Source: Thermoanaerobacter kivui
GTDB lineage: Bacteria; Bacillota; Thermoanaerobacteria; Thermoanaerobacterales; Thermoanaerobacteraceae
Assembly: GCF_000763575.1 (NCBI RefSeq)
Contig: NZ_CP009170.1
Coordinates: 459,501-523,500, forward strand
DNA: 64,000 nt
Reading direction: 5' to 3'
Of this stretch, positions 44,150 through 62,239 are shown piece by piece (the first letter of the stretch is position 1; every line of letters starts with the position of its first letter). The position numbers and the translations under genes were made by a program. The notes below the pieces were generated by a model. It saw nothing but the letters and a program-made list of their open reading frames with translations. It searched no databases and was not told the DNA's origin.

Positions 44150-47100
44150 GTGAAAAGAATTACGGCTGTAGTATGGCATAGTTATGCAACACTTCTAAGA
44201 AAGGTGAGTGAGGAATTAAAAGGAGTTTTGGATGTAAAAGTTTATTCAGCACGCCTTCTTGAAGAAGGGAAAGAAGATATTGATGAACTTTATAAAGAAA
44301 TGGAAGAATCAGATTTGCTGTTTTTCTATCGATCATCGGGAGAAAGTGTATGGACGGAACTGGAGTCCAAAGTAAAAACCATGAATAAACCGGTTGTTTG
44401 TACTGCTTTTGACCCTACATTTTGGTCCATGTCAAATGTTAATATAAGCATACCTGCAAAATGTTATGCTTACATGACACAGGGAGGTAATGAAAATTTC
44501 CTCCAAATGTTTTTGATGCTGGCAGCGGAAGTACTTGGCTTAAATGTTTCTTATTCAGAACCAAAGGAATATCCGTGGGAAGGGATCTATCATCCTGATG
44601 CTTCAAAAATCTTTTCTTCTGTTGAAGAATATTTTTCTTGGTATAAAATACACAGAAAAAATAATATAGCGAACAAAAATTTTACCCAAATACCAACAGT
44701 AGGTTTGCTCTTTGCACGCAGTTATTGGGTAAATAATAATACAGCTGTAGAGGACATGTTGATACGTACCTTAGAAGAAAAAGGATTGAATGTTATACCT
44801 GTTTTCTGTTATTCCGTGAAAGATGATGGACTTGGTACAAGAAGTGCCGGAGAGGTTGTACGGCAATATTTTATAAAAGAAGGAAAACCTTTAATCAATG
44901 CCTTGATAAAACTTATGTCTTTCTTTTTGGAAAGCAGTAAGCAGGAGTTTGATAAGAAAGAAACAGCTTCTAAAGGTGTATCCTTGTTACAAGAATTGGG
45001 GGTGCCTGTATTTGAACCGGTGGTATCTTATTATAAGACAATCGAGGAATGGCAAGAAGATCCTCAAGGTTTGAATACGGATATTTCGTGGACAATAGCG
45101 ATGCCTGAGTTTGAGGGAGTGATAGAACCTATATTTATTGGAGCAATCGAGCGAAAAGATGGCTTCGAGAGGCGGGTACCAGTGGAAGAAAGGATAAAAA
45201 AGCTGGTTGATCGCATAAACAAATGGATAATGCTTCAGTTAAAGCCTGTTCAGGCAAGAAAGGTAGCTTTTATACTTCATAATAATCCTTGTGCATCTGT
45301 GGAAGCAACAGTTGGAGGAGGAGCAAATTTAGATACTTTAGAAAGTGTGGCTCGTATACTGAGTTGCATGAAAGAAAGGGGTTATGATGTAGAACTCCCT
45401 GCTGATGGCAAAGAGTTGATTAAAACAATTATGGAAAGAAAAGCTATATCTGAATTCAGATGGACAACCATTGACGAGATTGTTAATAAAGGCGGAGTGA
45501 TTAAATTCATGGATGTGGATGAATATTGCCGCTGGTTTGATACATTGGAACCAGAGGTTAAAAAGCGCATAACAGAGGCATGGGGTAATCCGCCAGGGGA
45601 AGAAATGAATGGTGTTCCAGCGGCAATGGTTTATGATGGGAAGATTGCCATAACCGGTGTAAAACTTGGCAATGCCTATGTGTGTGTACAGCCCAAGAGG
45701 GGATGTGCAGGTTCCAGGTGTGATGGACGGGTTTGTAAGATACTGCATGACCCTGATATTCCACCACCCCACCAGTATTTGGCTACTTACAAATATCTGG
45801 AAGAGCAAGTAGATGTAATTGTTCATGTAGGAACCCATGGTAATCTTGAGTTTTTGCCAGGGAAAGGAGTTGCACTGTCACAAAATTGTTATCCAGACAT
45901 TGCTATTGGTAATATTCCTCATTTATACATATATAATGCGGATAATCCTCCAGAAGGAACTATTGCCAAGAGGAGAAGTTATGCTACTCTTGTTGATCAT
46001 ATGCAAACTGTGATGACACAGGGAGGGCTCTATGATGAACTTGCCGAGCTTGATAGATATATGGAGGAATATGAAAAGGCTAAAGTTGCGGATCCTGCAA
46101 GAGCCCATGCATTAAAGCATATGATAATAGACGAAATAAAGCGGACAAATCTTGACAAGCAGATACCGCTGGAAAACGCTCATGATTCTTTTGAAGAAGT
46201 AGCTGAAAGGGTTCATGCTTTGCTTTCGGTAATCAGGAATACACAGATTCAGGACGGGCAGCATATATTTGGGGATATCCCTGAAGGGGAGCGGCGTGTA
46301 GAGTTTATAAATTCTATTATGCGTTTTGATAGTGGCAATGAAGTTTCTTTGAGACGTGTCGTAGCAAGGCTTATGAACTTAGAGCTTTCTGAACTTCTCA
46401 GTGATCAGAGTAAAATTTGTTTAAAATATGGTAAATCCTATGGGGCTCTTTTGGAAGAAGTTGATAGAGTTTCTAAAGCCTTTTTAGCTCATCTTATTGA
46501 GGGTATAGAGATAGATACAAATCTTGCAAGAGAGGTATTGAAAGAAAAGTTTGTTTGTGAAGAAGCTTTGAAAGATTTAAATGCTCTTTTGCCACGGGTA
46601 ATGGACTTAAACGAAAGGGTTGAAGCTTCGAAAGAGATAGATGCTCTCTTGTCTGGTTTTGAAGGTAAATACATTCCAGCAGGACCGTCGGGTTTGATTA
46701 CAAGAGGCAGAGATGACGTTTTGCCGACAGGCAGGAACTTTTATTCATTGGATCCTTACAGAGTTCCTACTAAAGCAGCATATGAGGTAGGAAAACGTCT
46801 TGCAGAAAAGGTGATAGAAAAGTACTTGAAGGAAGAAGGGCGTTATCCCGAGAATATTGCTATATACTGGATGTGCAATGACATCATGTGGGCTGACGGC
46901 GAAGGATTGGGGCAGATGCTTTACCTTTTAGGTGTACGCCCAAAATGGTTGCCAAACGGCCGGGTAAGTGGTATTGAAGTGATTCCACTTGAAGAACTTG
47001 GACGACCGAGGATTGATCTAACAGTTAGGGTTTCAGGAATTACGAGGGATAACTTTCCAAATTGCATTGAATTGTTAGATGAAGCTATTCAGACTGTTGC

Positions 47101-48031
47101 TGCTTTGGATGAGCCCGAAGAACAGAACTTTGTCAGAAAACATACGCTTTCCCAATTGAAGGGTAGTAAAGGGGAGGAAGCATGGAGAAATGCCACATTA
47201 AGGATATTTGCTTCTAAACCTGGCACCTATTCTGCAGGCGTTAATCTTGCTGTTTATGCTTCGGCATGGAAAGAAGAAAAGGACCTTGCAGATATCTTTG
47301 TTTATTGGAATGGATATGCTTACGGCAAGAACACATTTGGCAAAGAGGCTTTCAAAGAACTTCAGTCAAGTCTTAAAACAGTGGATGTGACTTATAACAA
47401 AGTTGTATGCGATGAATATGACCTTTTTGGTTGCTGCTGTTATTTTGGTACTCATGGTGGTATGACGGCAGCGGCAAGGGTGGCTTCCGGAAAGGAGGTG
47501 AAAACCTACTACGGCGATACCAGGGAACCCGAACATGTTGAAGTGAGAACCTTAGCGGATGAAGTGCGAAGGGTTGTAAGGACCAAGCTTTTAAATCCAA
47601 AATGGATAGAAGGACAGAAACGGCACGGCTATAAGGGAGCGAGTGACATTTCCAAGCGTATAGGGCGTGTTTATGGCTGGGAAGCGACTACCCAAGAGGT
47701 AGATGATTGGATTTTTGATGATATTGCGAAAACCTTTATTCTCAACAGAGAAAATCGACAGTTTTTTAAAGAAAATAATCCGTGGGCAATGGAGGAAATA
47801 GTCCGCCGTCTCTTAGAAGCTGAGCAAAGGGGATTGTGGAAGGCTGACCCACAAGTATTAGAAAGTTTAAGAGAAACGTATCTTGAAATAGAAGGTTGGC
47901 TGGAAGAAGACATGGGTGACGTAAAGGGAGAGTTTCAAGGCGGTGCCATTGATATCCTCACAGCGGAAGAAGTTTCTGATTGGGGAGCCAAGATGAAAGA
48001 AGTCAAAGCAAAGCTGGGAGAGGAAAATTAA
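44150..48031 (+). CDS. cobN: CobN-type large chelatase subunit
   Basis: A 1293-residue CobN/ChlH-family protein, the porphyrin- or corrin-binding large subunit of cobalt or magnesium chelatase. Family marks are RGCAGSRCDGRVCK, HVGTHGNLEFLPGKGVALS, LYIYNADNPPEGTIAKRRSYA, IAIYWMCNDIMWADGEGLGQ, YFGTHGGMT. Length matches CobN. With ChlI/ChlD ATPase subunits encoded at 51570-53596, a full three-part chelatase is present. No cobalamin biosynthesis genes are in the window, so the metal and ring are not settled. GTG 44150 follows GAAGGAGGGGAG. It begins the metal cluster. Confidence 0.92.
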   Translation: MKRITAVVWHSYATLLRKVSEELKGVLDVKVYSARLLEEGKEDIDELYKEMEESDLLFFYRSSGESVWTELESKVKTMNKPVVCTAFDPTFWSMSNVNISIPAKCYAYMTQGGNENFLQMFLMLAAEVLGLNVSYSEPKEYPWEGIYHPDASKIFSSVEEYFSWYKIHRKNNIANKNFTQIPTVGLLFARSYWVNNNTAVEDMLIRTLEEKGLNVIPVFCYSVKDDGLGTRSAGEVVRQYFIKEGKPLINALIKLMSFFLESSKQEFDKKETASKGVSLLQELGVPVFEPVVSYYKTIEEWQEDPQGLNTDISWTIAMPEFEGVIEPIFIGAIERKDGFERRVPVEERIKKLVDRINKWIMLQLKPVQARKVAFILHNNPCASVEATVGGGANLDTLESVARILSCMKERGYDVELPADGKELIKTIMERKAISEFRWTTIDEIVNKGGVIKFMDVDEYCRWFDTLEPEVKKRITEAWGNPPGEEMNGVPAAMVYDGKIAITGVKLGNAYVCVQPKRGCAGSRCDGRVCKILHDPDIPPPHQYLATYKYLEEQVDVIVHVGTHGNLEFLPGKGVALSQNCYPDIAIGNIPHLYIYNADNPPEGTIAKRRSYATLVDHMQTVMTQGGLYDELAELDRYMEEYEKAKVADPARAHALKHMIIDEIKRTNLDKQIPLENAHDSFEEVAERVHALLSVIRNTQIQDGQHIFGDIPEGERRVEFINSIMRFDSGNEVSLRRVVARLMNLELSELLSDQSKICLKYGKSYGALLEEVDRVSKAFLAHLIEGIEIDTNLAREVLKEKFVCEEALKDLNALLPRVMDLNERVEASKEIDALLSGFEGKYIPAGPSGLITRGRDDVLPTGRNFYSLDPYRVPTKAAYEVGKRLAEKVIEKYLKEEGRYPENIAIYWMCNDIMWADGEGLGQMLYLLGVRPKWLPNGRVSGIEVIPLEELGRPRIDLTVRVSGITRDNFPNCIELLDEAIQTVAALDEPEEQNFVRKHTLSQLKGSKGEEAWRNATLRIFASKPGTYSAGVNLAVYASAWKEEKDLADIFVYWNGYAYGKNTFGKEAFKELQSSLKTVDVTYNKVVCDEYDLFGCCCYFGTHGGMTAAARVASGKEVKTYYGDTREPEHVEVRTLADEVRRVVRTKLLNPKWIEGQKRHGYKGASDISKRIGRVYGWEATTQEVDDWIFDDIAKTFILNRENRQFFKENNPWAMEEIVRRLLEAEQRGLWKADPQVLESLRETYLEIEGWLEEDMGDVKGEFQGGAIDILTAEEVSDWGAKMKEVKAKLGEEN

Positions 48032-48054
48032 AAATCTTGAAGGAGGGTTTTATA

Positions 48055-49455
48055 ATGAAAAAGAAGATTTGCTTTTTGATGATTTTTGTTTTACTGATGT
48101 CTTTGTTGCCTGCTTTTGGACTTGCCAATCCGGTTAAGGCTCAGGAAACACAGGTTTATTTAAACGGTGTAAAAATAAATATGGGGGATGCTTTACCCTG
48201 CATAGTGAATGGACGCACAATGGTGCCTGTAAGGCTCTTTTCTGAAAACCTTGGTGCAACGGTAAAATGGGATAATACTACACAGACTGTAACAATACAG
48301 AGCGAAGATGTCAGTGTAAAATTAATCATTGGCAAAAAGGAAGCTGTTGTAAATGGCAAAAACAAAACACTTGATGCTGCACCTATGGTTATCTCTGGAA
48401 GGACGATGGTTCCATTAAGATTTATAGCGGAAGCCTTCGGTGCTGTTGTGAAGTGGGACAAAGAGGCGTCTAAGGCAGTAGTAGTTTGGAATGTTAAAAT
48501 CAAGGATTCTACAGGAAATGACGTGACAGTACCTGCAGGCTTGAACAGATTAGTGGTTTTAAATACTGATGCAGCAGAGTCCTTGCGTATTTTACAAATT
48601 CCTGATGAGTTCATAGTTGGTGTGAGTGATACTGTAAAAACAGATCCTTATCTCGGTTTTGAAAACAAAGAGAGTGTGGGAAGCTGGCAAAAACCTAATT
48701 TTGAAAAGATTCTGTCAGTAAAACCTCAGGCAGTTATCACTTATGGGAAGTGGCCTGATACAACATTGGAGGACAATTTAAAACCTGCCGGTATAAAGGT
48801 TATAAGGCTTGACCTTTATAAACCCGAGACATATGACAATGACCTCAAAACATTGGCTAAAATATTTGGAAGGGTAAAGACAGCCGAGGAGTTTATACAA
48901 TGGAAGGCAAATAAAACAGCCGTTGTAGTAGACAGGGTAAAGGATTTGAAACCAGAAAATAAGGTTAAGGTGTTTGGAATATGGAGTAGTTCTCTGACGG
49001 CAACCACATGGAAAACCTTTGCCCAAAACACTGCTGTTCATCAAGGGTTGGAATCAGCTGGTGGAATCAATGTTGCCCGTGATATGAAGGATTACCCAGA
49101 AATAAGCCCGGAATGGGTTTTAGAAAAAAATCCTGACAAAATAGTTATAGGTACCTACGATAAGGATGTAATTGGGTATAGTGTAAAAGATAATACGAAT
49201 GTTTCAAAATTAAGAGATAGTGCTCTCGTTAATCCTGTTATAAGTCAAACTAATGCAGGGAAGAACAAAGAGGTCTATATAATTTCTACTAAATTGTTCG
49301 GAGGAAATAAAACATATTTGGGGAGCCTTTACCTTGCCAAGTGGTTATATCCTGATCGATTTAAGGATGTCAATCCTAGTCAAATTTTGAAAGAGTACTT
49401 TGAAAAATGGCTGGGGATACCTATGAAAGGCGTATGGGCTTATCCAGAGCCATAA
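48055..49455 (+). CDS. Binding protein of BtuF/FecB type with N-terminal stalk domains
   Basis: A 466-residue exported protein. The signal peptide (MKKKICFLMIFVLLMSLLPA...) is almost identical to those at 56669 and 59493. Two stalk domains follow (about 33-145; VNGRTMVPVRLFSENLGATV, ISGRTMVPLRFIAEAFGAVV), then a periplasmic-binding domain of the cobalamin/iron-siderophore class (about 155-466; GGINVARDMKDYPEISPEWV). It has no lipobox Cys, so retention may rely on the stalk domains. ATG 48055 follows AAGGAGGG, 23 bp after cobN. Confidence 0.85.
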   Translation: MKKKICFLMIFVLLMSLLPAFGLANPVKAQETQVYLNGVKINMGDALPCIVNGRTMVPVRLFSENLGATVKWDNTTQTVTIQSEDVSVKLIIGKKEAVVNGKNKTLDAAPMVISGRTMVPLRFIAEAFGAVVKWDKEASKAVVVWNVKIKDSTGNDVTVPAGLNRLVVLNTDAAESLRILQIPDEFIVGVSDTVKTDPYLGFENKESVGSWQKPNFEKILSVKPQAVITYGKWPDTTLEDNLKPAGIKVIRLDLYKPETYDNDLKTLAKIFGRVKTAEEFIQWKANKTAVVVDRVKDLKPENKVKVFGIWSSSLTATTWKTFAQNTAVHQGLESAGGINVARDMKDYPEISPEWVLEKNPDKIVIGTYDKDVIGYSVKDNTNVSKLRDSALVNPVISQTNAGKNKEVYIISTKLFGGNKTYLGSLYLAKWLYPDRFKDVNPSQILKEYFEKWLGIPMKGVWAYPEP

Positions 49456-49483
49456 AACTGCAACGCAGAGGTGAAAGTATTTC

Positions 49484-50641
49484 GTGCCTAAATATCGAAA
49501 AGGTTTGTTAAAATTACTACTATTGTGTTTGATAACATGCATTTTTAGCTGTTTTGGGTTGCAAGTGGCATCGGGTGCAGGAGGTAATTCTCCTACACCC
49601 GATGAATATAGTTCAGGCTGTCATTTAGCTCAAGTAAAGATTGCAGAAATATTTCGGCATAACGGTAGTTATCCTTATTCCATAGCAGTAAAAGTAGGAG
49701 AAAAAGATGCGATAAATCGTGCAGGTGTAAGTCTTTCTGTTGCTATGTATGCCTTAGGTGTGAAGCCAGTATGGGATGCTGCTGGTAATATAATAGGCAT
49801 AGAGGTTATTGATACGGCTGACTTGGGAAGGCACCGTATTGATGCTTTTATAGTAATAGATAAAGATGTTTCCAAAAATTTCTATTCTTCTCTTATGTTG
49901 ATGGACCGGGCATATCGCAAAATTTTAGCGTGTTCATACAATACACTGATTGAGAAATATCCAGAACTTAAAGATTCCTTAGATAGCACTTTAAAACCAC
50001 TGGGCAATTATGATAAAGGAAATGAACCATTAGAAGAAAACCCTATGGCTCTTCATTGGGCAGAAGAAGTAAAAACATTTTTGTCAAAGGGATATGATTC
50101 GACTTCTGCAGGGGAAATGTCAATAAACTTAAGAAAAGTTGATTCTGATGAAAAAGCACTTCCTAAAGATGCCGAGGTCATAAATGCTTCTATTCAGGGT
50201 AGTACAAATACTATGGAGATAATATTCGGCAACGAGACTGGAAGTGGTACAGGTTCGGGAAGTGGTGCAAGGACAGACAATGAAGCTGCTTCAAAAGGTG
50301 TATTGACTGCTTCTTCTAAAAACGATGAAAAAAGCGAGAGTAAGAAATTAGGAAACAAAGAGGGATATGCCATAGAAACAAAACCACAGGCTCCATCGAA
50401 TGCATCTCAAGAAGCAAATCTTCAGGACAAATCCATTTCGAATCAAAAAGATACAGGTAAAGAAAGCAGCAGTGGTGGAGGTGGCGGAGGTTCAGGAACC
50501 GGACATGTTTATGAAGTTACTGTAGAAAATCAGCAGATTCCCCAAAAAAATCCGACATATTCTACTTTTGTATATTTATTTATACCATTAACGCTGATAA
50601 CTGGTATGATATACCAGAATAAAAAAGGATATTTGAGGTGA
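49484..50641 (+). CDS. Exported, membrane-anchored CobN-like domain protein
   Basis: A 385-residue protein: signal peptide (about 1-33), a folded part (about 44-200), a low-complexity Gly/Ser linker (about 250-345) and a C-terminal membrane segment (about 360-378) with a basic tail. Residues about 47-145 match CobN residues about 880-985, for example MYALGVKPVWDAAGNIIGIE against LYLLGVRPKWLPNGRVSGIE, then DLGRHRID against ELGRPRID. So a piece of the chelatase large subunit is displayed outside the membrane. It does not contain the CobN metal-site region. The ExbB-like gene starts 5 bp later. Start GTG 49484. Confidence 0.75.
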   Translation: MPKYRKGLLKLLLLCLITCIFSCFGLQVASGAGGNSPTPDEYSSGCHLAQVKIAEIFRHNGSYPYSIAVKVGEKDAINRAGVSLSVAMYALGVKPVWDAAGNIIGIEVIDTADLGRHRIDAFIVIDKDVSKNFYSSLMLMDRAYRKILACSYNTLIEKYPELKDSLDSTLKPLGNYDKGNEPLEENPMALHWAEEVKTFLSKGYDSTSAGEMSINLRKVDSDEKALPKDAEVINASIQGSTNTMEIIFGNETGSGTGSGSGARTDNEAASKGVLTASSKNDEKSESKKLGNKEGYAIETKPQAPSNASQEANLQDKSISNQKDTGKESSSGGGGGGSGTGHVYEVTVENQQIPQKNPTYSTFVYLFIPLTLITGMIYQNKKGYLR

Positions 50642-50646
50642 AGTAA

Positions 50647-51288
50647 ATGATTTTGAGTCAAACATTGCATTGTATAGCCCAGAGTTTGCTTATACCGGTT
50701 ATTGTATTTTTGTATATCTTTTTCTTATGGAGTCTTGTAGAACTGGGAAGTTTTTCGGTGGAAAGTGTACGTAGAAAGAGAATGTCTGCTGACAGGCTTA
50801 TAACTTATTTCAGGAATATTTCTGATTTTAATGACCTTGAAAAATTTATTGAAGAGAGCGAATTACCAAAAAGAGGGAAAGAGATATTGAGCCAGATTTT
50901 TCAAAATAAGGACCTTTCCGCAGACTCCATTTATGTTCTCAAGAAAAAATTAATTGAAGATGAGGAAATAAGGGCAACTAAGGTATTAGAAAAAACCGAT
51001 ATAATAGCAAGACTCGGTCCTCTTGTAGGTTTGATGGGTACATTGATACCATTGGGACCAGGACTTACAGCGATGGCAAATGGTGATATGAAATTATTAG
51101 CCGAATCAATTAGTGTTGCCTTTGACAATACGGTAGTGGGTATGGGAGCAGCAGGTATATCCTATGTTATTTCAAGGATAAGAAGAAGATGGTATGAGGA
51201 ATACCTTAGTACATTGGATGAAATAGCCAATTTATTTATAGAGGTGATAGTTGATGAAAAGGAAAACGAGCAACTTGTCACGCCTTGA
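50647..51288 (+). CDS. MotA/TolQ/ExbB-type proton channel protein
   Basis: A 213-residue protein with the ExbB pattern: one N-terminal membrane helix (about 10-33), a cytoplasmic loop (about 40-110), and two further helices (about 118-142, LGPLVGLMGTLIPLGPGL, and about 148-175, SISVAFDNTVVGMGAAGISY). ExbB/TolQ proteins form proton channels with ExbD/TolR and usually power outer-membrane systems. A Gram-positive cell has no outer membrane, so another partner is likely; the exported CobN-like protein is encoded just upstream and DUF2149 just downstream. Confidence 0.88.
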   Translation: MILSQTLHCIAQSLLIPVIVFLYIFFLWSLVELGSFSVESVRRKRMSADRLITYFRNISDFNDLEKFIEESELPKRGKEILSQIFQNKDLSADSIYVLKKKLIEDEEIRATKVLEKTDIIARLGPLVGLMGTLIPLGPGLTAMANGDMKLLAESISVAFDNTVVGMGAAGISYVISRIRRRWYEEYLSTLDEIANLFIEVIVDEKENEQLVTP

Positions 51289-51553
51289 GGCAGAAAGCGA
51301 AGAATTTAATCCTATGACCTATGTTGTTAATCTTGCCGACCTGATGCTTGTGTTTGCTTGCGGATTGATAATCTCCCTGATGCTCAACGGGAATCCAGGG
51401 AAGATTGTAGGGAAGATTGTACAGATCAAAGAAATTACCAATCAGAGTGAGAATATAAAGGGACAAGCTATAGAAGGAAAAGGCGATTTAGAAAAACTTG
51501 GAGAAGCTTACAAAGATAATAAAACAGGGAAAATCTATATTATTACAAAATAA
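51254..51553 (+). CDS. DUF2149 protein, ExbD-like
   Basis: A 99-residue protein with a single membrane helix (about 24-43) preceded by a short cytoplasmic tail. Asp29 in [14 protein letters not shown] sits where ExbD/TolR/MotB carry their proton-binding Asp. DUF2149 genes are known beside ExbB-like and CobN-like genes in methanogens. It overlaps the ExbB-like gene by 35 bp. Start ATG 51254 after GAGGTGAT. Confidence 0.8.
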
Positions 51554-51569
51554 GAGGAGGAATTTAAAG

Positions 51570-52715
51570 ATGTATTATCCATTCAGTGCAATAGTTGGGC
51601 AAAAATTGATGAAAAAAGCCCTGATTTTAAATGCTATAAATCCCAAATTAGGTGGAGTTTTAATAAGAGGAGAAAAAGGAACAGCTAAATCTACTGCAGT
51701 TCGTGCTTTGGCGGAACTTTTACCAGAAATAAGAGTTGTAGAAGGCTGTCCCTTCGGTTGTGATCCAGACAACCCAGCCCAGATGTGTACAAACTGCAGG
51801 GAAAAGTGGGAAAGGGGAGAAAAACTTCCAGTAACAACTCGAAAGATGCGGGTAGTAGATCTTCCAATAAGTGCTACAGAGGATAGAGTTGTGGGTACAC
51901 TTGATATAGAAAGGGCAATAAAAAAAGGGGAAAAATGCTTTGAACCGGGTGTTCTTGCAGAAGCAAACAGAGGAATTCTTTATGTGGACGAAGTTAATCT
52001 TCTAGATGACCATGTAGTGGATATATTATTGGATTCTGCGGCAATGGGTGTCAACATTGTAGAAAGGGAGGGAGTATCCTTTTCGCATCCCGCTAATTTC
52101 ATTCTTGTAGGGACAATGAATCCAGAAGAAGGGGATTTAAGGCCACAGCTTTTAGACAGGTTTGGGCTTTGTGTATCAGTAGAGGGGATAGACGATCCAT
52201 CAGCCCGTGTAGAGATAATAAAAAACCGTCTTGCCTTTGAAGAAGACCCGGCAAAATTTGCTGAGAAATGGGAAGAGAAGCAGGAGGAATTAAGGCAAAA
52301 AATTTTCAGTGCCAAGCAACTTCTTCCTCATGTCCGTGTTGATGATAAAATGCTTGAGCTGATAGCTCGAATTTCTCTTGATATGGGAGTAGATGGCCAC
52401 CGAGCTGATATAGTTATGATGAAAACAGCAGCAACTATTGCAGCTTATAAAGGGAAGGAGTTAGTAGAAGAGGAGGAAGTGAAAGAGGCTGCAGAGCTTG
52501 TTTTACCTCACAGAATGAGGAAGAAGCCCTTTGAGCAATCACAAATGGATAAGGAAAAGTTAGAACAGATATTAAAAGAACAGCAAAAGCAGCAGCAAAG
52601 TCAACCAAAACCGCAAAATCAACAGCAGCAACGCCAACAAGAACAGCAACGCCAACAACAACAGCAGCAACAAGAAGTTGAAGGAGAAGATAAAAAAAAA
52701 CTGATAAATCTGTAG
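51570..52715 (+). CDS. chlD: ChlI/BchI-type AAA+ chelatase subunit (0-frame product of a split chlD gene)
   Basis: A 381-residue product. Walker A is GEKGTAKST (about 33-41), a four-Cys loop follows ([17 protein letters not shown]), Walker B is [10 protein letters not shown]. After the lid domain comes a Gln-rich linker (about 345-370), typical of ChlD between its AAA and VWA parts. The frame ends at TAG 52713-52715 just after an A9 run (52692-52700). Slipping -1 there continues into the VWA frame without a stop, giving one 675-residue ChlD. The short product could serve as the ChlI/CobS subunit. Ribosome site AAGAGGAGG. Confidence 0.88.
52681..52700 (+). promoter_or_regulatory. Candidate -1 frameshift or slippage site in chlD
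   Basis: AAGGAG (52681-52686) lies 5 bp before an uninterrupted A9 run (52692-52700). An internal Shine-Dalgarno-like sequence upstream of an A-rich slippery run is the known arrangement in E. coli dnaX; A9 alone can also cause RNA polymerase slippage. Confidence 0.6.
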
Positions 52716-53596
52716 AAGAAGAGGAGGGAGAAAATAATAACGGTTCAGAGGAGCAGGTATTTGAGATAGGAGAGGAATTTTCTATCAAAAGGATTATGTT
52801 TTCAAAAGATAAAAATTTAAGAAGAAAGGGTTCAGGGAGAAGAAGTCTTACAAGAATTAATAGCAAGAAAGGAAGGTATGTAAGAAGTAAATTTTATAAT
52901 GAAAACAATGACATAGCCTTTGATGCTACATTGAGAGCGGCTGCTCCTTACCAAAAAAGCCGCAAAAAAGAAGGAGTTGCAATTTCAATTAAAGAATGGG
53001 ATATAAGAGAAAAGGTGAGAGAAAAGAAGATTGGTAATTTTATTGTATTTGTTGTAGATGGAAGTGGATCAATGAATGCTAATCAGCGGATAAAAGCTGC
53101 AAAAGGGGCAATTGTTTCTCTTTTACTTGATGCTTATCAAAAAAGAGATGAAGTTGCAATGATTGTATTTAAAGGAGAAACGGCAGAAGTAGTTTTACCG
53201 CCGACATCTAGTGTAGAACTGGCATATAAGCTGATGGAAGAACTGCCTACAGGAGGAAAAACACCCTTGGCTGAAGGGTTATATAAGGGGCTGGAAGTTA
53301 TAAAAAATGCAAAGTACAGAAATCCTGACATATATCCCATAATTGTATTGATTTCCGATGGCAGAGCTAATGTAAGCAGGGGTTCTAAAAAACCTATTGA
53401 AGAAGTTAAGGAAATGGCATTGTTGATAAAAAAAGAAGAGATAAAATCTATTGTCATTGACGTGGAAAAGGACAATTTCATAACTTTTGGACTTGCCAGA
53501 GAAATTGCAAATCTAATGGATGCAAAGTATTTTAAGATTGATGACCTTAAAGCTGAGAAAATAATAGATGTTGTAAAACAATCCCTGTATGTGTAG
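52701..53596 (+). CDS. chlD: VWA (ChlD/CobT C-terminal) part of the split chlD gene
   Basis: From the A9 run the -1 frame reads an acidic linker ([19 protein letters not shown]), a basic stretch with [10 protein letters not shown], and a von Willebrand A domain with an intact MIDAS: DGSGS, T in [10 protein letters not shown], and D in ISDGRANV. There is no good ribosome site for the internal ATG 52796, and the 81 bp before it keep coding character, so the frame is best read as the second half of ChlD. It couples the AAA+ ring to CobN. Confidence 0.82.
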
Positions 53597-53740: not shown

Positions 53741-53791
53741 AAAGGTAAGAAACCAGAAAAAAGGAAGAAGACCTTGAGGAGTGGGGGAAAA

Positions 53792-54691
53792 TTGAAAAAT
53801 GCTGAAGCTGGTACCTATACACAGGAATATCAAGCTGTAATGATAGAACTGAAAAACGTGATTAAAAAGTATGGTTGTGTAACAGCTGTAGCTGGAATAA
53901 GTTTCCAGGTTTTGCAGGGAGAAATTTTCGGGCTTTTAGGTCCAAATGGGGCAGGGAAGACTACCATCATCCGCATGCTTACCACCCTGCTTAAACCAAC
54001 ATCAGGTGAACTGTATGTAGCCGGTTACTCGGTGACCAGAAACCCGGTAGAGGTCAAACGTCGTATTGGCGTAGTGCCTCAAGTTAACAACTTAGAACGG
54101 GAACTGACCGGACGGGAAAACTTGGTTTTACATGCTATGTTGCATAAAATGTCTCGTATTGAGCGGGAAAAAAGAATAAAAGAATTAATAGATTATGTAG
54201 GACTGTCATCTAAAGCAGATCAACAGGTACAGAACTATTCAGGAGGTATGGCACGGCGTCTTTTAATTGCCCGTGCATTAATGCATCGTCCGCCCATACT
54301 TTTTCTGGATGAACCGACTATCGGACTGGATCCACAGACACGGCGTAAGATCTGGGATCTGATCCAATTGATGAACAAGGACGGAATGACGGTGTTACTG
54401 ACTACTCATTATCTCGAAGAAGCTGACAGCTTATGCCATCGGGTGGGCATCATCGATTATGGACGGATTATTGCATTGGGTACGCCGTCAGAGCTCAAGG
54501 AAAAGCTGGGCCGGTATTGTGTGGAGTTTCTGAATGAACAAGGCACTGAACGGCACTTCTTTGCCACTATTGACGAAGCTCGTGAGTACGCAAGGACAAA
54601 GGACTGCGACACAGTGGTACGGCGCACCAATTTAGAAGATGTTTTCGTGGAGTTGACTGGTCATGAAGCAAGAGAATTGTCCTCAAAATAA
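53792..54691 (+). CDS. ABC-2 type exporter, ATPase
   Basis: A 299-residue DrrA/NodI-type ATPase: Walker A GPNGAGKTT, signature YSGGMARRLLIARAL, Walker B LFLDEPTIGLDPQ, His switch in TTHYLEEAD. A C-terminal extension is as in drug exporters. I chose TTG 53792 after AGGAG 53777-53781; ATG 53840 lacks a ribosome site. Base composition is clearly more GC-rich than the chelatase genes before it. Confidence 0.9.
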   Translation: MKNAEAGTYTQEYQAVMIELKNVIKKYGCVTAVAGISFQVLQGEIFGLLGPNGAGKTTIIRMLTTLLKPTSGELYVAGYSVTRNPVEVKRRIGVVPQVNNLERELTGRENLVLHAMLHKMSRIEREKRIKELIDYVGLSSKADQQVQNYSGGMARRLLIARALMHRPPILFLDEPTIGLDPQTRRKIWDLIQLMNKDGMTVLLTTHYLEEADSLCHRVGIIDYGRIIALGTPSELKEKLGRYCVEFLNEQGTERHFFATIDEAREYARTKDCDTVVRRTNLEDVFVELTGHEARELSSK

Positions 54692-55493
54692 CCCAAAGTT
54701 TATCAGCATCGAGCCGTCAGGAATTTGTGCACTCAAGCGCATGTTCATGAATTGTATGGACTGGGTGCCCATCGTGGTGGCCATGGGACTGGCCTGGCGA
54801 CGGCGCTGGTGGCGCTTTATCATTGGTGGTATCAACCGTCCGCTCATTTTTGTGCTCCTTTTTTTCTGGAATCTGGGTGGGCATACAGTAAGTGCTGAGG
54901 ACAGCTATCTGGGATTTTTGGTGCCTGGTTTAGTGGTGATGGCAGCAGTGTCATCAAGCTATTCTGATCTTGTTAACTGGTTTGTTTTGAGACGTACTTT
55001 TTACCGTGTGCTGGACGAATACATGCTGGCCCCCATTTCTTACAGTTCTCTTTTAATCGGACACGTGCTGGGAGCTGCAAGTAAGGGGTTTGTCTTAGCC
55101 CTGTTACTATTTCTGTTCGTTCGCATTTTTGTGCATGGATTTTTTATATCGCTGTATTTTCTTGTTCAGTTGTTTGTCATTTGTCTGACTTTTGCCTGCT
55201 TAGCCGTTGCCGTAGCTATGGTTGCTGGGAGTGATAAGGATACTTTGATGTTTACTAATTTATTTATATCGCCAATGACATTTTTCTGTGGTACTTTTTT
55301 TCCGGTAGAGCAATTGCCTGGACTACTGTTACACTTAAGCTGGAGCTTGCCTTTGACAGCAGCCACTTATAACTTGCGCTCACTTGCACTGACTGGTACT
55401 GGGCATGTGGATTGGTTTTTACAGAGCCTGGGCTGGCTGACCGGATTTTGCCTTATGGCTTATTTCTTGTTGAAGAGGAAGGTTAATAGTTGA
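54663..55493 (+). CDS. ABC-2 type exporter, permease 1
   Basis: A 276-residue NodJ/DrrB-type membrane protein with about six segments and the ABC-2 signature near NLFISPMTFFCGTFFPVEQLP. It overlaps the ATPase gene by 29 bp. It shares the GC-rich composition of its neighbours. The exported substrate is unknown. Confidence 0.85.
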   Translation: MKQENCPQNNPKFISIEPSGICALKRMFMNCMDWVPIVVAMGLAWRRRWWRFIIGGINRPLIFVLLFFWNLGGHTVSAEDSYLGFLVPGLVVMAAVSSSYSDLVNWFVLRRTFYRVLDEYMLAPISYSSLLIGHVLGAASKGFVLALLLFLFVRIFVHGFFISLYFLVQLFVICLTFACLAVAVAMVAGSDKDTLMFTNLFISPMTFFCGTFFPVEQLPGLLLHLSWSLPLTAATYNLRSLALTGTGHVDWFLQSLGWLTGFCLMAYFLLKRKVNS

Positions 55494-55583
55494 AGATATC
55501 AGACTATTTGTCAGGTAGTTTAGGTTGAAATTACCTATTGTACGGGAGTTGTCAGGATATGCAGAGGTGAGAGGAGGATATTT

Positions 55584-56372
55584 TTGACTAATGGTTTTTA
55601 TTCTGGTAGTGTAGAAAGAGTTGCTTTCTCTCCACCAAGCTGGTACCCCATTATTTGGGAAGAGATGATCTACTGGCGAAACCATTTTTGGCTCTATCTG
55701 GTTATGTATATGCTATCTCCTGTGATTTTCCTGCTTTCTTTTGGCTTTGGTGTGGGGCGTTGGATGCGAATGGCCATGCCAGGTGGTATAAGCTATTTGG
55801 AATTCTTAATACCGGGAGTAGTGGCTCTAACTCTGTTTAACAATGGAGTGACGTCAGTAATAATACGCATGTTTTATACGCGTATTCACTTCCAGACTTT
55901 TGAATCCTATCGACTTGCCCCGATAGGTGAAATTTCCCTGTGTATAGGATATACCCTGGCTGGTGCTATGCGTGGACTGATAGCCGGTTTGATTACGACG
56001 GCAATGGCATTTATGTTTATCCCTGCATTGAAACTTAAGTGGGCTTTTTTCTGGGCGATGCTGTTGGTATCTTTCTGTTTTGGCGCCATGGGTGTCTTTA
56101 TTGGATTATGTTTACGCTCTTTTGACGATCACGCCCTGGTCAGCGAGTTTATACTGGTACCCATGACCTTTTTGAGCGGAACTTTAATTCCGATTGAGCG
56201 TTTACCCGGTTTCTTGCAAGATTGTGTCTGGTTATTTCCTCTTACTCCAGCTGCCCAGTTATTGCGTTCTACGCTATCTGTAAGAGGAGTGGATGCCGGG
56301 CAGGCAGCTTTGGTGGGAGTATGGGGCTTGGCTTTTTTCTTGCTGGGGTGGTGGAGGTTAAAGGAAATGTAG
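55584..56372 (+). CDS. ABC-2 type exporter, permease 2
   Basis: A 262-residue paralogue of the preceding permease (FILVPMTFLSGTLIPIERLP against the same motif). Two different permeases with one ATPase suggest a heterodimeric channel. TTG 55584 is the start, after GAGAGGAGG; there is no better ATG. Confidence 0.85.
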   Translation: MTNGFYSGSVERVAFSPPSWYPIIWEEMIYWRNHFWLYLVMYMLSPVIFLLSFGFGVGRWMRMAMPGGISYLEFLIPGVVALTLFNNGVTSVIIRMFYTRIHFQTFESYRLAPIGEISLCIGYTLAGAMRGLIAGLITTAMAFMFIPALKLKWAFFWAMLLVSFCFGAMGVFIGLCLRSFDDHALVSEFILVPMTFLSGTLIPIERLPGFLQDCVWLFPLTPAAQLLRSTLSVRGVDAGQAALVGVWGLAFFLLGWWRLKEM

Positions 56373-56668: not shown

Positions 56669-57775
56669 ATGAAAAAGAAGATTTGCTTTTTGATGATTTT
56701 TGTTTTAATGATGTCTTTGTTATCTGCATGTGGGGTTAATAATTCAAGTCAGACAACAAAATCATCGGCTTCCACACCACAGAAAGTTGTTGTTACCGAT
56801 GCAATTGGTCGTAAGGTTGAGGTCCCTATTCCAGCAAAGAAAATAGTATCAGTTAATGAGAGCGCTACACGGCTTATTTCTTATCTAGATGGATTAGATA
56901 AAGTGGTAGGTATTGAAACTTTATCCAAATTTTCTGATGCTTATAAACCATATCTTTTGGCTCATCCAGAGTTAAAAAATTTACCGCAAGTTGGTAAAGG
57001 GAATAGCTTAAATATGGAGGAGATAATTAAACTTAAACCGGATGTAATCTTTTATGTCCATTATGGAGATATGGATCCGGATAAACTGCAAACACAAACG
57101 CATATCCCTGTTGTGGCACTGAAGTATGGAGAGAAATGTGCATTTAGCGAAGATGTTTATAAATCTTTGCAAATCGTCGGCAGGATTATAGGTAAAGAAA
57201 AAAGAGCACAAGAAGTGGTTGATTATCTTAAAAGATGTGAGCAAGATTTGAACAATAGAACGAAAAATATTTCTGAAGACAAAAAGCCCAAAGTCTATGT
57301 ATGCGGAATAGGTTTTTATGGAGTACATGGCATTGAGAGTACCCAAGGCAAGTATAGACCTTTGAATCTTATTAATGCCAAAAATGTTGCTGATGAAACT
57401 GGAAAAACAGGAAGTATCATAATTGACAAGGAAAAACTTTTAAGTTGGGATCCTGACATCATTTTTATTGATGAATTTGGGCTTTCTTTAGTGAAAGATG
57501 ATTACAAGAAAAATTCCCAGTTTTACCAATCCATAAAAGCGTTTAAAAAAGGACAGGTTTATACACAGTTACCATATGTTTGTTACGACATAAATATTGA
57601 GAATGCCATAGCTGATGCTTATTGGGCAGGAAAAGTGATTTTCCCTGAGCGATTTAAGGATATCAACCCAGAACAAAAAGCTGATGATATTTACAAGTTT
57701 TTTTTGGGTAAACCTTTGTATAAAGATATGAAAAAGAGTTTAAGTGGGTTTAAGAAATTGGACCTTGGCAGTTAA
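56669..57775 (+). CDS. BtuF/FecB-type binding lipoprotein
   Basis: A 368-residue lipoprotein (lipobox LSAC, Cys near 21) with a class III binding-protein fold: VVVTDAIGRKVEVPIPAKKI, VGKGNSLNMEEIIKLKPDVI. Its signal peptide is nearly the same at DNA level as those at 48055 and 59493, up to the lipobox. This family binds corrinoids, haem or siderophores. Ribosome site AAAAAGGAGG before ATG 56669. Confidence 0.88.
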   Translation: MKKKICFLMIFVLMMSLLSACGVNNSSQTTKSSASTPQKVVVTDAIGRKVEVPIPAKKIVSVNESATRLISYLDGLDKVVGIETLSKFSDAYKPYLLAHPELKNLPQVGKGNSLNMEEIIKLKPDVIFYVHYGDMDPDKLQTQTHIPVVALKYGEKCAFSEDVYKSLQIVGRIIGKEKRAQEVVDYLKRCEQDLNNRTKNISEDKKPKVYVCGIGFYGVHGIESTQGKYRPLNLINAKNVADETGKTGSIIIDKEKLLSWDPDIIFIDEFGLSLVKDDYKKNSQFYQSIKAFKKGQVYTQLPYVCYDINIENAIADAYWAGKVIFPERFKDINPEQKADDIYKFFLGKPLYKDMKKSLSGFKKLDLGS

Positions 57776-57835
57776 AAATAAATGGATTGAAATGGGTTTA
57801 AAGGATGATTTTAAAAAGCTGAAAGGGGGTAATTA

Positions 57836-58729
57836 ATGAAAATGAGTTATGAGATTATAAAGAAGACCATTGATGAGCTAAGGGCTTTGGGTGTCAAAGG
57901 TAACCTGTTAGATGTTATTGTAACCCGTTCAACGCGCCTTTTCACACCATGGACTTTTAGCTATATTACTTGTGAAGATGGGTATATAGGTTGTGGAATG
58001 GGCAACAATGGTTTTGATGTCCCAATTGACCTATCTTTTCTTGAAGAGCTCATAAATCTTGATGCTTACAAAGTTATAAACAGGTTAGAGCAAGGTAATA
58101 TGAGGATGTTTGACCTTTCTGTAATAATTTCAATCCTTGCAGCATTATCACATAAATTTATGTGGGATGAAAATGCTTTAAGAGCTCATGGCTTTGATGC
58201 AAAAATGCTATCAAAGCCAGCCCTCTCGGCCATTTTGGATTTAGGTTTAATTGATAGTAAAGATGTTGTAGCTTTTGTTGGATACTTTTATGGTTTTGTT
58301 GCACAAATTTCGACTTTTGTTAAAGAAGTAAATATTTTAGAGTTAGAGCCAATAGGTGATTTTGACATATATAAAGCAAAATCTGAGAATACAAATGTAA
58401 GGGTTTTTCCTTCTTCTAAGAGCAAGGAAGTTTTAGAGCATGCTGATGTTGTAATAATGACAGGTATGACCATAGCTAACGGAACCGTTTTGCCACTTCT
58501 TGAGTTTACTAAAAATGCACGCTTTGTTATGATGATGGGTCCCACTAATACCTTCTATCCTAAGGCGCTGTTTGATGCAGGTGTTGATTTGATAGGTGCT
58601 ATTGTATTTCCAAGCGGAGAACAATTTAAAAAGCGTTTTATCAACAGCCGAGGTTATTGGTACAGCGAAATGGATTTAAAGCATATGTTGATCTGCCCAA
58701 AAGGCAGAATGAAAAAGATAAAACCTTAA
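57836..58729 (+). CDS. DUF364 putative heavy-metal chelation protein
   Basis: A 297-residue cytoplasmic protein with an N-terminal DUF4213-like half and a C-terminal DUF364 half (VVIMTGMTIANGTVLPLLEF, MMMGPTNTFYPKALFDAGVD). The family is linked to metal-cofactor genes and may bind metal or a metallophore; the reaction is unknown. ATG 57836 or 57842; ribosome site AAAGGGGG. Confidence 0.8.
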   Translation: MKMSYEIIKKTIDELRALGVKGNLLDVIVTRSTRLFTPWTFSYITCEDGYIGCGMGNNGFDVPIDLSFLEELINLDAYKVINRLEQGNMRMFDLSVIISILAALSHKFMWDENALRAHGFDAKMLSKPALSAILDLGLIDSKDVVAFVGYFYGFVAQISTFVKEVNILELEPIGDFDIYKAKSENTNVRVFPSSKSKEVLEHADVVIMTGMTIANGTVLPLLEFTKNARFVMMMGPTNTFYPKALFDAGVDLIGAIVFPSGEQFKKRFINSRGYWYSEMDLKHMLICPKGRMKKIKP

Positions 58730-58797
58730 AGATGCTCTGAGGATATTCTTAGGAATTTTGAGCAGACAAAGTTAAAAAGCAAGTAAAAAGGGGGTGA

Positions 58798-59418
58798 ATG
58801 ACAGTGATTCTAAAAACAAATCAGAGGGAACAGGTTATGCCACTTCCAGTTGTGCTGGTTTCCACTGTTAGCAAGGATGGGATACGTAACATTGCTCCGT
58901 GGTCAAATATCACACCAATTTTAAGACCTTTTGACGACATAGTTTTGGCTTCATGGATTAAGCGCGATACTTTAGACAATATCCGGGAAACAGGGGAATT
59001 TGTGATTAATGTACCGCCTGTTGATTTGGCTGATGCAGTAATGATTTGTTCCAAAAATTATCCGCCGGAAGTTGATGAGTTTGAGCAAGCCGGTTTAAAG
59101 CCTCGTCCTTCTAAAAAAGTTAAAGCGCCGGGAATTGAAGGTTGCTTAGCCTGGGTGGAGTGTATGCTGGTAGAGGAAATTAGCAGAAAAAACTATTCAT
59201 TGGTCATTGGTAAAGTAGTGAATTTGGATGTGGATGACTATTACTTCAATAAATACGGGGAGATGGACTACGAGAAGGCCAAACCGCTATCAGTGATGCT
59301 CGGTGACCAAGGTATGTGGTTTACCCGGCCGGTTTTTGCAGGCAGGTATGCTGGTTATGCAGAAATGTTCCTGAACAAAAAGGATGAAGCACCCACGATT
59401 ACCGGCGAAAATGGGTAG
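58798..59418 (+). CDS. Flavin reductase-like FMN-binding protein
   Basis: A 206-residue split-barrel flavoprotein (VVLVSTVSKDGIRNIAPWSN, SWIKRDTLDNIRETGEFVIN). Such proteins pass electrons via FMN; in a metal cluster one likely job is reducing a bound metal, for example Co(III) or Fe(III), but this is inference. Ribosome site AAAAGGGGGTG. Confidence 0.82.
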   Translation: MTVILKTNQREQVMPLPVVLVSTVSKDGIRNIAPWSNITPILRPFDDIVLASWIKRDTLDNIRETGEFVINVPPVDLADAVMICSKNYPPEVDEFEQAGLKPRPSKKVKAPGIEGCLAWVECMLVEEISRKNYSLVIGKVVNLDVDDYYFNKYGEMDYEKAKPLSVMLGDQGMWFTRPVFAGRYAGYAEMFLNKKDEAPTITGENG

Positions 59419-59492
59419 AAATTGGATGACCTGTAGGGAATGTGCTGAAAAGGTTAAAGAGAAAGATTAAAAAATTGAAAGAGGTGTTGAAA

Positions 59493-60593
59493 TTGAAAAA
59501 GAAGATTTGCTTTTTGATGATTTTTGTTCTATTGATGTCATTATTGCCTGCTTTTGGACTTGCCAATCCGGTTAAGCCTGAAGATTCTAAACAAAAGCAG
59601 CAAACTGAAAATAAACAAGAGAAAATTATTGTAAAAGAGCAATTGCTTGACGAAAAAGGACAGATTATAGAAGATGAAGTTTCGATTCTTGCTCCTCCTA
59701 AAAAGGTGGTAGTTTTAGGGTGCTATGGTGCTGAGATGTTAAAAGCGATCGGGGTTGAGAATACAGTAATTGCGGTTGATGATTATACTAAAGAAAAGAA
59801 TGGATGGCCGGACTTTGTCAAAAATATACCTTCTGTAGGAGCTTCAAATACGCCGAGTATAGAGAAGATTATAGAGTTAAAACCTGATTTAGTTATTGAG
59901 GGTTTTTTGGATCCGAAGCTAAAAACACAACTTTTAAATTGCGGAATTCCAGTTCTTAAAATTTACGGCTATAGAACAGAATTGATTACATCAGAAATTG
60001 AAACCTTGGGCAAGGTTTTTAAATGCCAAACACGAGCACATGAATATGCCAACTATATTGAAAAACAATGGCAGGCAATAAGAGATCGCACAAAAGGTTT
60101 GACTGAAAAAGATAAACCTAAGGTTTATTGGGAATCTGGCTTGGGAGATTGGAAAACCCAAAGCTATGGTTCTGGTGCCCACTCTCTTATTGAATGGGCT
60201 GGAGGAATTAATATTGCTGCTGACCAGAAATTATCTTATCCCACAGTAACTCCAGAGTGGGTTGCATCAAAAAATCCAGATGTAATTATTAAATACGTGG
60301 ATGCACCAATAACTGGGTGGAATGGTGATATTAAAAAACTTGAAGAAATACGCCAGCAAATTTTGAATCGTCCTGCTCTTAAAAATACTAATGCCGTAAA
60401 AAATGGACGAGTTTATTTAGTAAGTTCAAAAATTACATGCGCACCTCAAGGTGCAGCGGGAGAATGGTATATTGCTAAGTGGCTTCATCCAGAGCTATTT
60501 AAGGATGTAAATCCGCAATCGATTCACAAAGAGATGCTCAAAAAGTTTTATGGACAGGAATATAAAGGGGTATGGGTTTATCCAGTACAATAA
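59493..60593 (+). CDS. BtuF/FecB-type binding protein
   Basis: A 366-residue exported binding protein with the same signal peptide as the gene at 48055 (KKKICFLMIFVLLMSLLPA). A Gln/Lys/Glu-rich linker follows, then the binding domain (GCYGAEMLKAIGVENTVIAV, YPTVTPEWVASKNPDVIIKY). No lipobox Cys. TTG 59493 with GAGGTG 59481-59486 is the start; upstream frame is open but unneeded. Confidence 0.87.
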   Translation: MKKKICFLMIFVLLMSLLPAFGLANPVKPEDSKQKQQTENKQEKIIVKEQLLDEKGQIIEDEVSILAPPKKVVVLGCYGAEMLKAIGVENTVIAVDDYTKEKNGWPDFVKNIPSVGASNTPSIEKIIELKPDLVIEGFLDPKLKTQLLNCGIPVLKIYGYRTELITSEIETLGKVFKCQTRAHEYANYIEKQWQAIRDRTKGLTEKDKPKVYWESGLGDWKTQSYGSGAHSLIEWAGGINIAADQKLSYPTVTPEWVASKNPDVIIKYVDAPITGWNGDIKKLEEIRQQILNRPALKNTNAVKNGRVYLVSSKITCAPQGAAGEWYIAKWLHPELFKDVNPQSIHKEMLKKFYGQEYKGVWVYPVQ

Positions 60594-60611
60594 GCTTTTG
60601 ATGTTAATATT

Positions 60612-61066
60612 TAAAAGTTCACTGAGTGCAGGAGGGTAATTCTCTTACACTTGATCAAGTAATAAAATTTGCAGGAGGAAATAATATAACGGCTGATTTA
60701 GAACCATCACCAAATACAACAGATGTAAGTGCAGAATGGTTAATAGAGAAAAATCCGGAGGTTATTATATTTGTGTACAGCAGTGATTTATTAGGTTATA
60801 CAATAAACGATTATTCGGCGGTTATGAAATTAGCAAATGATATTAAAAAAGACCCTGTTCTAAGTAAAACAGATGCAGTTAAGAATAATCGAATATATTT
60901 TACAAATATTTCAAATTTATTCAGGTTTAGTGAAGCAGTTTATTTTGCTAAATGGTTTTATCCTGACCGTTTTAAAGATGTCAACCCCGATCAGCTTTTA
61001 AAGGAGTATTTTGAAAAATGGCTGGGGATACCCATGAAAGGCATATGGGTTTATCCTGAAAAATAA
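60612..61066 (+). pseudogene. Decayed 3' part of a BtuF-type binding protein gene
   Basis: Only the C-terminal half of a binding protein remains (about 140 codons; VIKFAGGNNITADLE, PDRFKDVNPDQLLKEYFEKW). Signal peptide and N-terminal lobe are missing, and an extra G near 60636 breaks the frame at the left edge. Its last 100 bp are close to the 3' end of the gene at 48055, so it is probably a partial duplicate. Confidence 0.78.
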
Positions 61067-61073
61067 TGGAGCT

Positions 61074-61105
61074 ATTGAATAGTTCACTCATGTGAACTAT
61101 TCAAT
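61074..61105 (+). promoter_or_regulatory. Perfect 14-bp hairpin before the permease gene
   Basis: ATTGAATAGTTCAC (61074-61087), loop TCAT, exact complementary arm (61092-61105). There is no T tract, so it is more likely an operator, an mRNA stability element or a processing site than a terminator. Confidence 0.6.
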
Positions 61106-61139
61106 ATAAATTAATATAAATTGAGGAAGGTGGATAAAT

Positions 61140-62210: not shown

Positions 62211-62239
62211 AAAATATAAAAGTATAAAAGGTGATTAGT

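What the first reader, a model, noticed from the sequence alone, without database searches (positions are those of the whole stretch)
49484..50641. A fragment of CobN displayed outside the cell
The protein has a signal peptide, a C-terminal membrane helix and a domain aligned to CobN residues about 880-985, with shared LGVxPxW, GIEVI and LGRxRID. This places part of a cytoplasmic chelatase on the cell surface, 5 bp before an ExbB-like gene. It may hold a tetrapyrrole or metallophore at the membrane.
Basis: partly seen in the sequence, partly recalled or inferred. Interest (0 to 1): 0.8.

Follow-up and report, generated by a model that had tools for sequence, protein, structure and literature searches.

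The report
Exported stump of an iron-stripping chelatase
In a heat-loving, probably single-membrane bacterium, one domain of a giant metal-inserting/removing enzyme has been kept as a small membrane-anchored surface protein beside the genes of a proton-driven motor, which suggests that such motors can power metal or pigment uptake even where there is no outer membrane to pull on.

Summary
Window 49484-50641 encodes a 385-aa protein with a signal peptide, a real CobN/ChlH domain (Pfam PF02514, E 2.8e-18; AlphaFold model matches only CobN/ChlH/HmuS in the PDB, probability 1.00), a disordered linker and a weak C-terminal membrane helix, 5 bp before an ExbB-like gene.

The interpretation needs correcting. 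The fragment does not come from the cytoplasmic CobN next door. It is a cut-down descendant of exported, C-terminally anchored HmuS-type chelatases: trees place it with an exported 1644-aa CobN (100/98), with which it shares a ~25-aa insertion. Such exported CobNs travel with ExbB + DUF2149 (15 of 23 loci, against 0 of 57 for non-exported CobN), the HmuU/HmuV pair of the Bacteroides heme operon. The fragment keeps about 180 residues of domain V and lacks all seven HmuS residues proposed to contact the tetrapyrrole or metal, so it cannot be a chelatase and probably does not hold a tetrapyrrole as HmuS does.

Best reading: it is the surface arm of an ExbB-DUF2149 proton motor in a corrinoid- or metallophore-uptake locus. 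The genome has no detectable TonB or TonB-dependent receptor. Other Bacillota fill the same slot with unrelated ectodomains. The mechanism is inferred; identity and ancestry are well supported.

The parts
49484..50641 (+). Exported domain-V-only CobN/HmuS fragment: signal peptide aa ~1-31, CobN domain ~36-220, low-complexity linker ~236-355 with GHVYEV motif, C-terminal TM ~358-376
50647..51288 (+). ExbB/TolQ/MotA-like channel subunit (HmuU-like); Thr132 and Thr162 invariant in 33/33 relatives
51251..51553 (+). DUF2149 protein (HmuV-like), one TM with Asp29 conserved in 29/30 Bacillota relatives; ExbD-like only suggestively
49343..51679 (.). 2337-bp block, 99.96% identical to a second copy at C1:1574-1577 kb; spans fragment + ExbB + DUF2149
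44150..48031 (+). Full-length cytosolic CobN (1293 aa, keeps HVGTHG), same strand upstream
47980..49455 (+). Substrate-binding protein (Peripla_BP_2, BtuF/IsdE/FhuD-like) with a copper-amine-oxidase N-terminal stalk domain
51498..52715 (+). ChlI/CobS-type AAA+ subunit (N-terminal part of TIGR02442), cytosolic chelatase motor
52796..53596 (+). ChlD/CobT-type VWA subunit (C-terminal part of TIGR02442)
53774..56372 (+). ABC ATPase and two ABC-2 membrane proteins
56669..63037 (+). Two Peripla_BP_2 binding proteins, DUF364 (putative heavy-metal chelation), flavin reductase, FecCD permease, FecE-type ATPase

Best explanation
The protein is a pseudochelatase: a streamlined relic of an exported, membrane-anchored HmuS-type CobN that lost the head, domains III, IV and VI and half of domain V, but kept the signal peptide, the core of domain V with a lineage-specific helical insertion, and the C-terminal anchor. 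It probably works as the extracytoplasmic arm of an ExbB-DUF2149 proton motor. Its C-terminal helix would sit with the ExbB pentamer and DUF2149; proton flow would move the arm; the domain-V/insert module would push on, dock or unload a surface partner, most simply the stalk-domain binding protein encoded just upstream, releasing a corrinoid, tetrapyrrole or metallophore to the FecCD-type importer. The cytosolic CobN-ChlI-ChlD of the same locus would then change the metal of the imported macrocycle. Shown here: homology, ancestry, gene coupling, conserved proton-channel residues, absence of TonB and TonB-dependent-receptor family matches, purifying selection. Inferred: membrane contacts, movement, partner, substrate.
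For: Exported CobN and ExbB-DUF2149 go together: DUF2149 within 8 kb of 15/23 exported and 0/57 non-exported CobN loci (p 7e-11; loci not independent), and 10 Bacillota loci. Fragment + exported G073a is a clade at 100/98, holding at 95/95 and 99/95 when either fragment group is dropped. Shared insertion LAxSYxxxxxxYPxLxxxLD is absent from cytosolic CobN. The fragment is coupled to ExbB-DUF2149 in all six loci read (window, second copy, G003, G092, G194, G244), and the three genes were copied as one block. In other Bacillota the gene coupled to ExbB encodes an unrelated ectodomain, also with signal peptide and C-terminal TM (20/21). [YF]E[IVLM] before that TM occurs in 5/5 fragments, 9/9 adjacent exported CobNs and 12/20 others. 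Conserved Thr/Asp channel residues. No TonB or TonB-receptor match in the genome. dN/dS 0.25, 0.15 in the CobN part.
Against: No contact between fragment and ExbB or DUF2149 was tested. The C-terminal helix is weakly hydrophobic. DUF2149 resembles ExbD only suggestively (hhalign probability 22%, control 3%). The tail motif is not universal (6/22 exported CobNs outside Bacillota). Some DUF2149 loci have no such adjacent partner (L200, L214). The substrate rests on neighbours only.
Confidence: 0.5

Rival explanations
1. Surface tetrapyrrole/corrinoid or metallophore holder: the domain captures the macrocycle outside the membrane and passes it to the binding protein.
For: Domain V forms the conserved face of the chelatase cleft and is proposed to recognise PPIX in HmuS (PMC12583661). 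Isolated C-terminal CobN and ChlH pieces fold on their own in the PDB (9fpc, titled for corrin and metal sites; 5ewu; 6ys9). Neighbours are uptake genes.
Against: All seven HmuS domain-V ligand residues are changed or absent; domain III with its His and domain VI are missing; SGxxRD, near-invariant in the family, is KDVSK here.
Confidence: 0.2
2. Docking or scaffold protein without mechanical role: it tethers the stalk-domain binding protein or a surface complex near the importer, and ExbB-DUF2149 acts on something else.
For: Most conserved part is a helical surface insertion rather than the old active site. It lies directly after a substrate-binding-protein gene in the window, the second copy and G003.
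Against: It occupies the slot of the C-anchored partner of the motor and was copied together with it.
Confidence: 0.15
3. Decaying leftover of an exported chelatase with no function.
For: Degeneration series 1644 aa (G073a), ~465 aa (G092/G194/G244), 385 aa (window). A third copy in the genome is a 79-aa remnant.
Against: Open in at least four genomes of distant families; dN/dS 0.25 (0.15-0.16 in the folded part) between window and G003; two intact identical copies.
Confidence: 0.08
4. Accessory subunit of the cytosolic CobN-ChlI-ChlD chelatase in the same operon.
For: Same operon-like order in the window and G003.
Against: Signal peptide, anchor, ancestry among exported CobNs; the T. phaeum-like loci lack ChlI/ChlD next to it.
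Confidence: 0.04

Closest known systems
HmuS (BtuS) heme de-chelatase of Bacteroidota, with HmuU (ExbB) and HmuV (DUF2149)
   Same: Best PDB sequence hit; exported with membrane helices; encoded with MotA/TolQ/ExbB and DUF2149 proteins (PMC12583661, PMC10434189)
   Different: HmuS is >1400 aa with six domains and both catalytic His; the fragment has part of domain V only. No HmuY; no TonB-receptor (HmuR-type) match in the genome; no HmuT (DUF2162) among the flanking genes scanned. HmuU/HmuV are assumed in the literature to power the outer-membrane receptor
CobN / ChlH class I chelatase large subunit (PF02514)
   Same: Same fold and motifs over domain V
   Different: Not cytosolic, about 10% of the length, no active site
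ExbB-ExbD-TonB and TolQ-TolR-TolA motors
   Same: ExbB-family channel with conserved Thr, a one-TM partner with conserved Asp, and a third envelope protein encoded beside them
   Different: The third protein has N-out topology and a C-terminal TM; no TonB C-terminal domain or TonB receptor is detected in the genome; DUF2149 is not a recognised ExbD

Membership tests
PF02514 CobN/Mg chelatase | Profile match above gathering score | tested here: met
   65.7 bits against 24.5, partial (profile 725-838)
PF02514 CobN/Mg chelatase | Complete six-domain body with catalytic cavity | tested here: not met
   Only part of domain V present
HmuS de-chelatase | HFG(T/A)HG His-538 in domain III | tested here: not met
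   Domain III absent
HmuS de-chelatase | LSLDHxxEFMGG (His-1209, Glu-1212) and Ser1014/Ser1067/Gln1198/Ser1199/Trp1202 | tested here: not met
   Glu73, Asp126, rest absent
HmuS de-chelatase | Met-79/His-254 heme site and methionine-rich insertion | tested here: not met
   Head and neck absent
HmuS de-chelatase | Export with N- and C-terminal membrane helices | tested here: met
   Hydropathy and model; prediction only
Hmu-type operon | Adjacent ExbB-like (HmuU) and DUF2149 (HmuV) | tested here: met
   PF01618 E 4.5e-11, PF09919 E 3.5e-7
Hmu-type operon | HmuT (DUF2162) and HmuR (TonB-dependent receptor) | tested here: not met
   No DUF2162 among flanking genes scanned (whole genome not searched for it); no TonB-receptor match in the genome
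TonB/TolA force transducer | TonB C-terminal domain, N-in topology | tested here: not met
   No PF03544 match in genome; fragment is N-out (predicted)
ExbB/ExbD-type 5:2 motor | Physical complex driven by proton motive force | not testable with these tools
   Only residue conservation and linkage available

The most novel reading that the evidence does not exclude
ExbB-DUF2149 is a TonB-independent proton motor that drives interchangeable, C-terminally anchored surface ectodomains (full exported CobN, CobN domain-V stumps, or sulfite-oxidase-fold/Big_2 proteins) in single-membrane bacteria, and in HmuS systems it works on the chelatase itself, standing in for the ATP motor ChlI/ChlD used by cytosolic CobN.
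Probability: 0.35. Interest if true: 0.82.

Novelty: new variant of a known kind. Interest (0 to 1): 0.62.

Why it matters
HmuS is a recent answer to how anaerobes take iron from heme, but what powers and assists it (HmuT, HmuU, HmuV) is unknown, and HmuU/HmuV are assumed to serve the TonB receptor. Finding the same ExbB-DUF2149 pair tied to exported chelatases, and to a chelatase stump in a genome without detectable TonB or TonB receptor, argues that the motor acts on the membrane-anchored surface protein itself.

Tried and rejected
Origin from the neighbouring cytosolic CobN: rejected by trees and insertion. Chance similarity or artefact: rejected. Tetrapyrrole holder by the HmuS site: not supported by residues. 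Wider search with a fragment profile in genome contigs returned ordinary CobN/ChlH and exported CobN but no further short fragments; the returned list was cut at 80 loci, so this is weak. Plasmid search of the domain: no match. PDB profile search with DUF2149 gave nothing; ExbB profile found MotA. hhalign DUF2149 against ExbD: weak, though the invariant Asp aligns with the ExbD Asp. A first hhalign run used wrong-strand ExbD sequences and was repeated. Search of the class of G073 for more G073a-like proteins covered only 4 genomes. Some papers of interest (structure paper for 9fpc) are not held.

Full report
Observation. The CobN match is PF02514 at E 2.8e-18 over aa 37-150. CobN and BchH NCBIfam models agree. 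The best solved relative by sequence is the HmuS heme de-chelatase (9d26, E 3.6e-9). The AlphaFold model, built on an alignment of the window protein and CobN domains from fetched loci, is confident for about residues 36-220 (pLDDT mostly 94-98) and disordered from 236 on. Its 20 Foldseek matches with E<0.001 are all CobN, ChlH or HmuS C-terminal regions. Hydropathy gives a strong N-terminal signal-type segment and a weaker C-terminal helix followed by KKGYLR.

Locus. Upstream lie a cytosolic CobN and a stalk-domain substrate-binding protein. Downstream lie ExbB, DUF2149, a ChlI-like AAA+ protein, a VWA protein (together the two halves of TIGR02442), an ABC-2 system, two more binding proteins, DUF364, FecCD and a FecE-type ATPase. 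The genome (2,397,824 bp, one contig) has the size reported for Thermoanaerobacter kivui (2.397 Mbp, PMC4320612; 2,397,805 bp on resequencing, PMC12056078). This identification rests on size only. The genome holds five full CobNs, all without signal or anchor, and two identical copies of the fragment. A 2337-bp block covering fragment, ExbB and DUF2149 is 99.96% identical between the two loci, and identity drops at its edges. A third copy is a 79-aa remnant. No match was found to TonB (PF03544) or the TonB-dependent receptor barrel (PF00593).

Relatives. Among 399 genomes of the phylum only a few carry short fragments: G092 (2,939,057 bp, the size of Thermacetogenium phaeum, PMC3551663), G194 and G244, besides G003 of the same family. 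The other species of the window's genus that were searched lack it. In every case the fragment precedes ExbB and DUF2149. All full-length CobNs read in fragment-carrying genomes are cytosolic. G073 and G182 instead have full-length CobNs of 1398-1688 aa with a signal peptide and a C-terminal helix, beside ExbB, DUF2149 and DUF2162. This is the HmuS-HmuT-HmuU-HmuV set of the Bacteroidota heme operon (HmuT as a membrane protein), described in PMC10434189, PMC12583661 and PMC13227078.

Ancestry. The fragments share with exported G073a an insertion (LAxSYxxxxxxYPxLxxxLDxxLxPL) that neither cytosolic CobN nor the other exported CobNs in the alignment have. In a 62-row tree the fragments form one group with G073a as sister (100/98), and the cytosolic CobNs form a separate clade (97/87). 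The tree program warned that long branches meet; each of the two fragment groups still joined G073a when the other was left out (95/95 and 99/95). So there is a series: exported full chelatase, then ~465-aa fragments with most of domain V, then the 385-aa window form.

Lost function. In HmuS, domain V contributes Ser1014, Ser1067, Gln1198, Ser1199, Trp1202, His1209 and Glu1212 to the proposed porphyrin/metal site, and domain III contributes His538. By alignment, Ser1014 is Glu73 and Ser1067 is Asp126; the rest lie beyond the retained part. Chelatase activity is excluded, and tetrapyrrole holding by the old site is unlikely. Yet the protein is under constraint: dN/dS 0.25 against G003, 0.15-0.16 in the folded part, 0.36 in the linker.

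Motor. DUF2149 occurs in 34 of 399 phylum genomes. Reading these loci shows three kinds of partner: exported CobN (10 loci), the CobN fragments, and about 20 loci where the gene immediately before ExbB encodes another exported, C-terminally anchored protein. Of five of the latter scanned, four have an Oxidored_molyb-like domain at or near the cut-off, and all five have Big_2. Neighbours in one such locus include a Shr-like heme-binding domain protein and an ABC_cobalt permease. In 20 of 21 such loci the partner has a C-terminal hydrophobic helix and is nearly always within 16 bp of ExbB. Outside Bacillota, DUF2149 lies within 8 kb of 15/23 exported CobN loci and 0/57 others (p 7e-11; related species inflate this). 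ExbB Thr132/Thr162 are invariant in 33/33 and DUF2149 Asp29 is kept in 29/30 Bacillota sequences and in 13/13 of a set from the window and other phyla. From general knowledge these match the positions of E. coli ExbB Thr148/Thr181 and ExbD Asp25; the profile comparison aligns the Asp but is weak.

Mechanism. With no detectable TonB or TonB receptor, the simplest target of this motor is the anchored surface protein itself. For exported chelatases it may drive (de)metallation or product release in place of the ATP motor. This fits the reported lack of ATP need in HmuS (PMC12583661), but is inference. For the fragment, which cannot catalyse, a moving or docking arm that unloads the adjacent binding protein is the most economical role. 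The substrate is probably a corrinoid or a metal chelate: a CobN cluster of G194 has CbiZ beside CobN and a binding protein, and a CobN N-terminal remnant in the window's own genome lies in a CbiZ/FecCD-type locus. This is suggestive only.

Verdict. Identity and ancestry are secure; the mechanism is at about 0.5. New variant of a known kind (HmuS-HmuUV), pointing to a wider, undescribed class of ExbB-DUF2149-driven surface proteins. The literature searches found five papers naming DUF2149; the one of them opened here (PMC10434189) and a paper on periplasmic force transducers (PMC12204202) do not propose this in the passages read.

Noticed in passing
L207-L213, L215-L227 (e.g. L217:4261-5955, L213:7693-9369): In about 20 Bacillota loci the gene coupled to ExbB-DUF2149 encodes an exported C-anchored protein unrelated to CobN; those scanned show sulfite-oxidase-like and Big_2 domains, with SLH, Shr-like heme-binding and ABC_cobalt neighbours. 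Looks like an undescribed surface metal/heme uptake class.
   Followed up: partly
L009:17016-17255 (-): Third, broken copy of the fragment: its 5' part joined to a short stretch of the ChlI gene (matches window 52142-52217), suggesting a deletion of the fragment-ExbB-DUF2149 part.
   Followed up: partly
window 62376-63010 and L009:5626-6260: FecE-type ATPase stretch 98.4% identical between the two loci, placed right after the copied module in the second locus.
   Followed up: no
L012:6156-6401: 81-aa ORF matching the first ~70 positions of CobN-Mg_chel (below cut-off), between CbiZ and a Peripla_BP_2/FecCD-type set: remnant of a sixth CobN in a corrinoid-salvage locus.
   Followed up: partly
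L010 and L011: Cytosolic CobNs; in L010 two of them are clustered with dipeptide/nickel-type ABC genes and a methyltransferase, and part of that ABC cluster is repeated at ~84% identity.
   Followed up: no
L060:8496-13430: G073a, a second exported CobN in tandem with a canonical one, has HLGRHA where the family has HxGxHG; possibly already a non-catalytic partner and the ancestor type of the fragments.
   Followed up: partly
L198:10796-14936: An ExbB-DUF2149 pair with DUF3344 proteins in the partner slot, beside a CbiQ-type cobalt transporter and cytosolic CobN; its DUF2149 lacks the conserved Asp.
   Followed up: no
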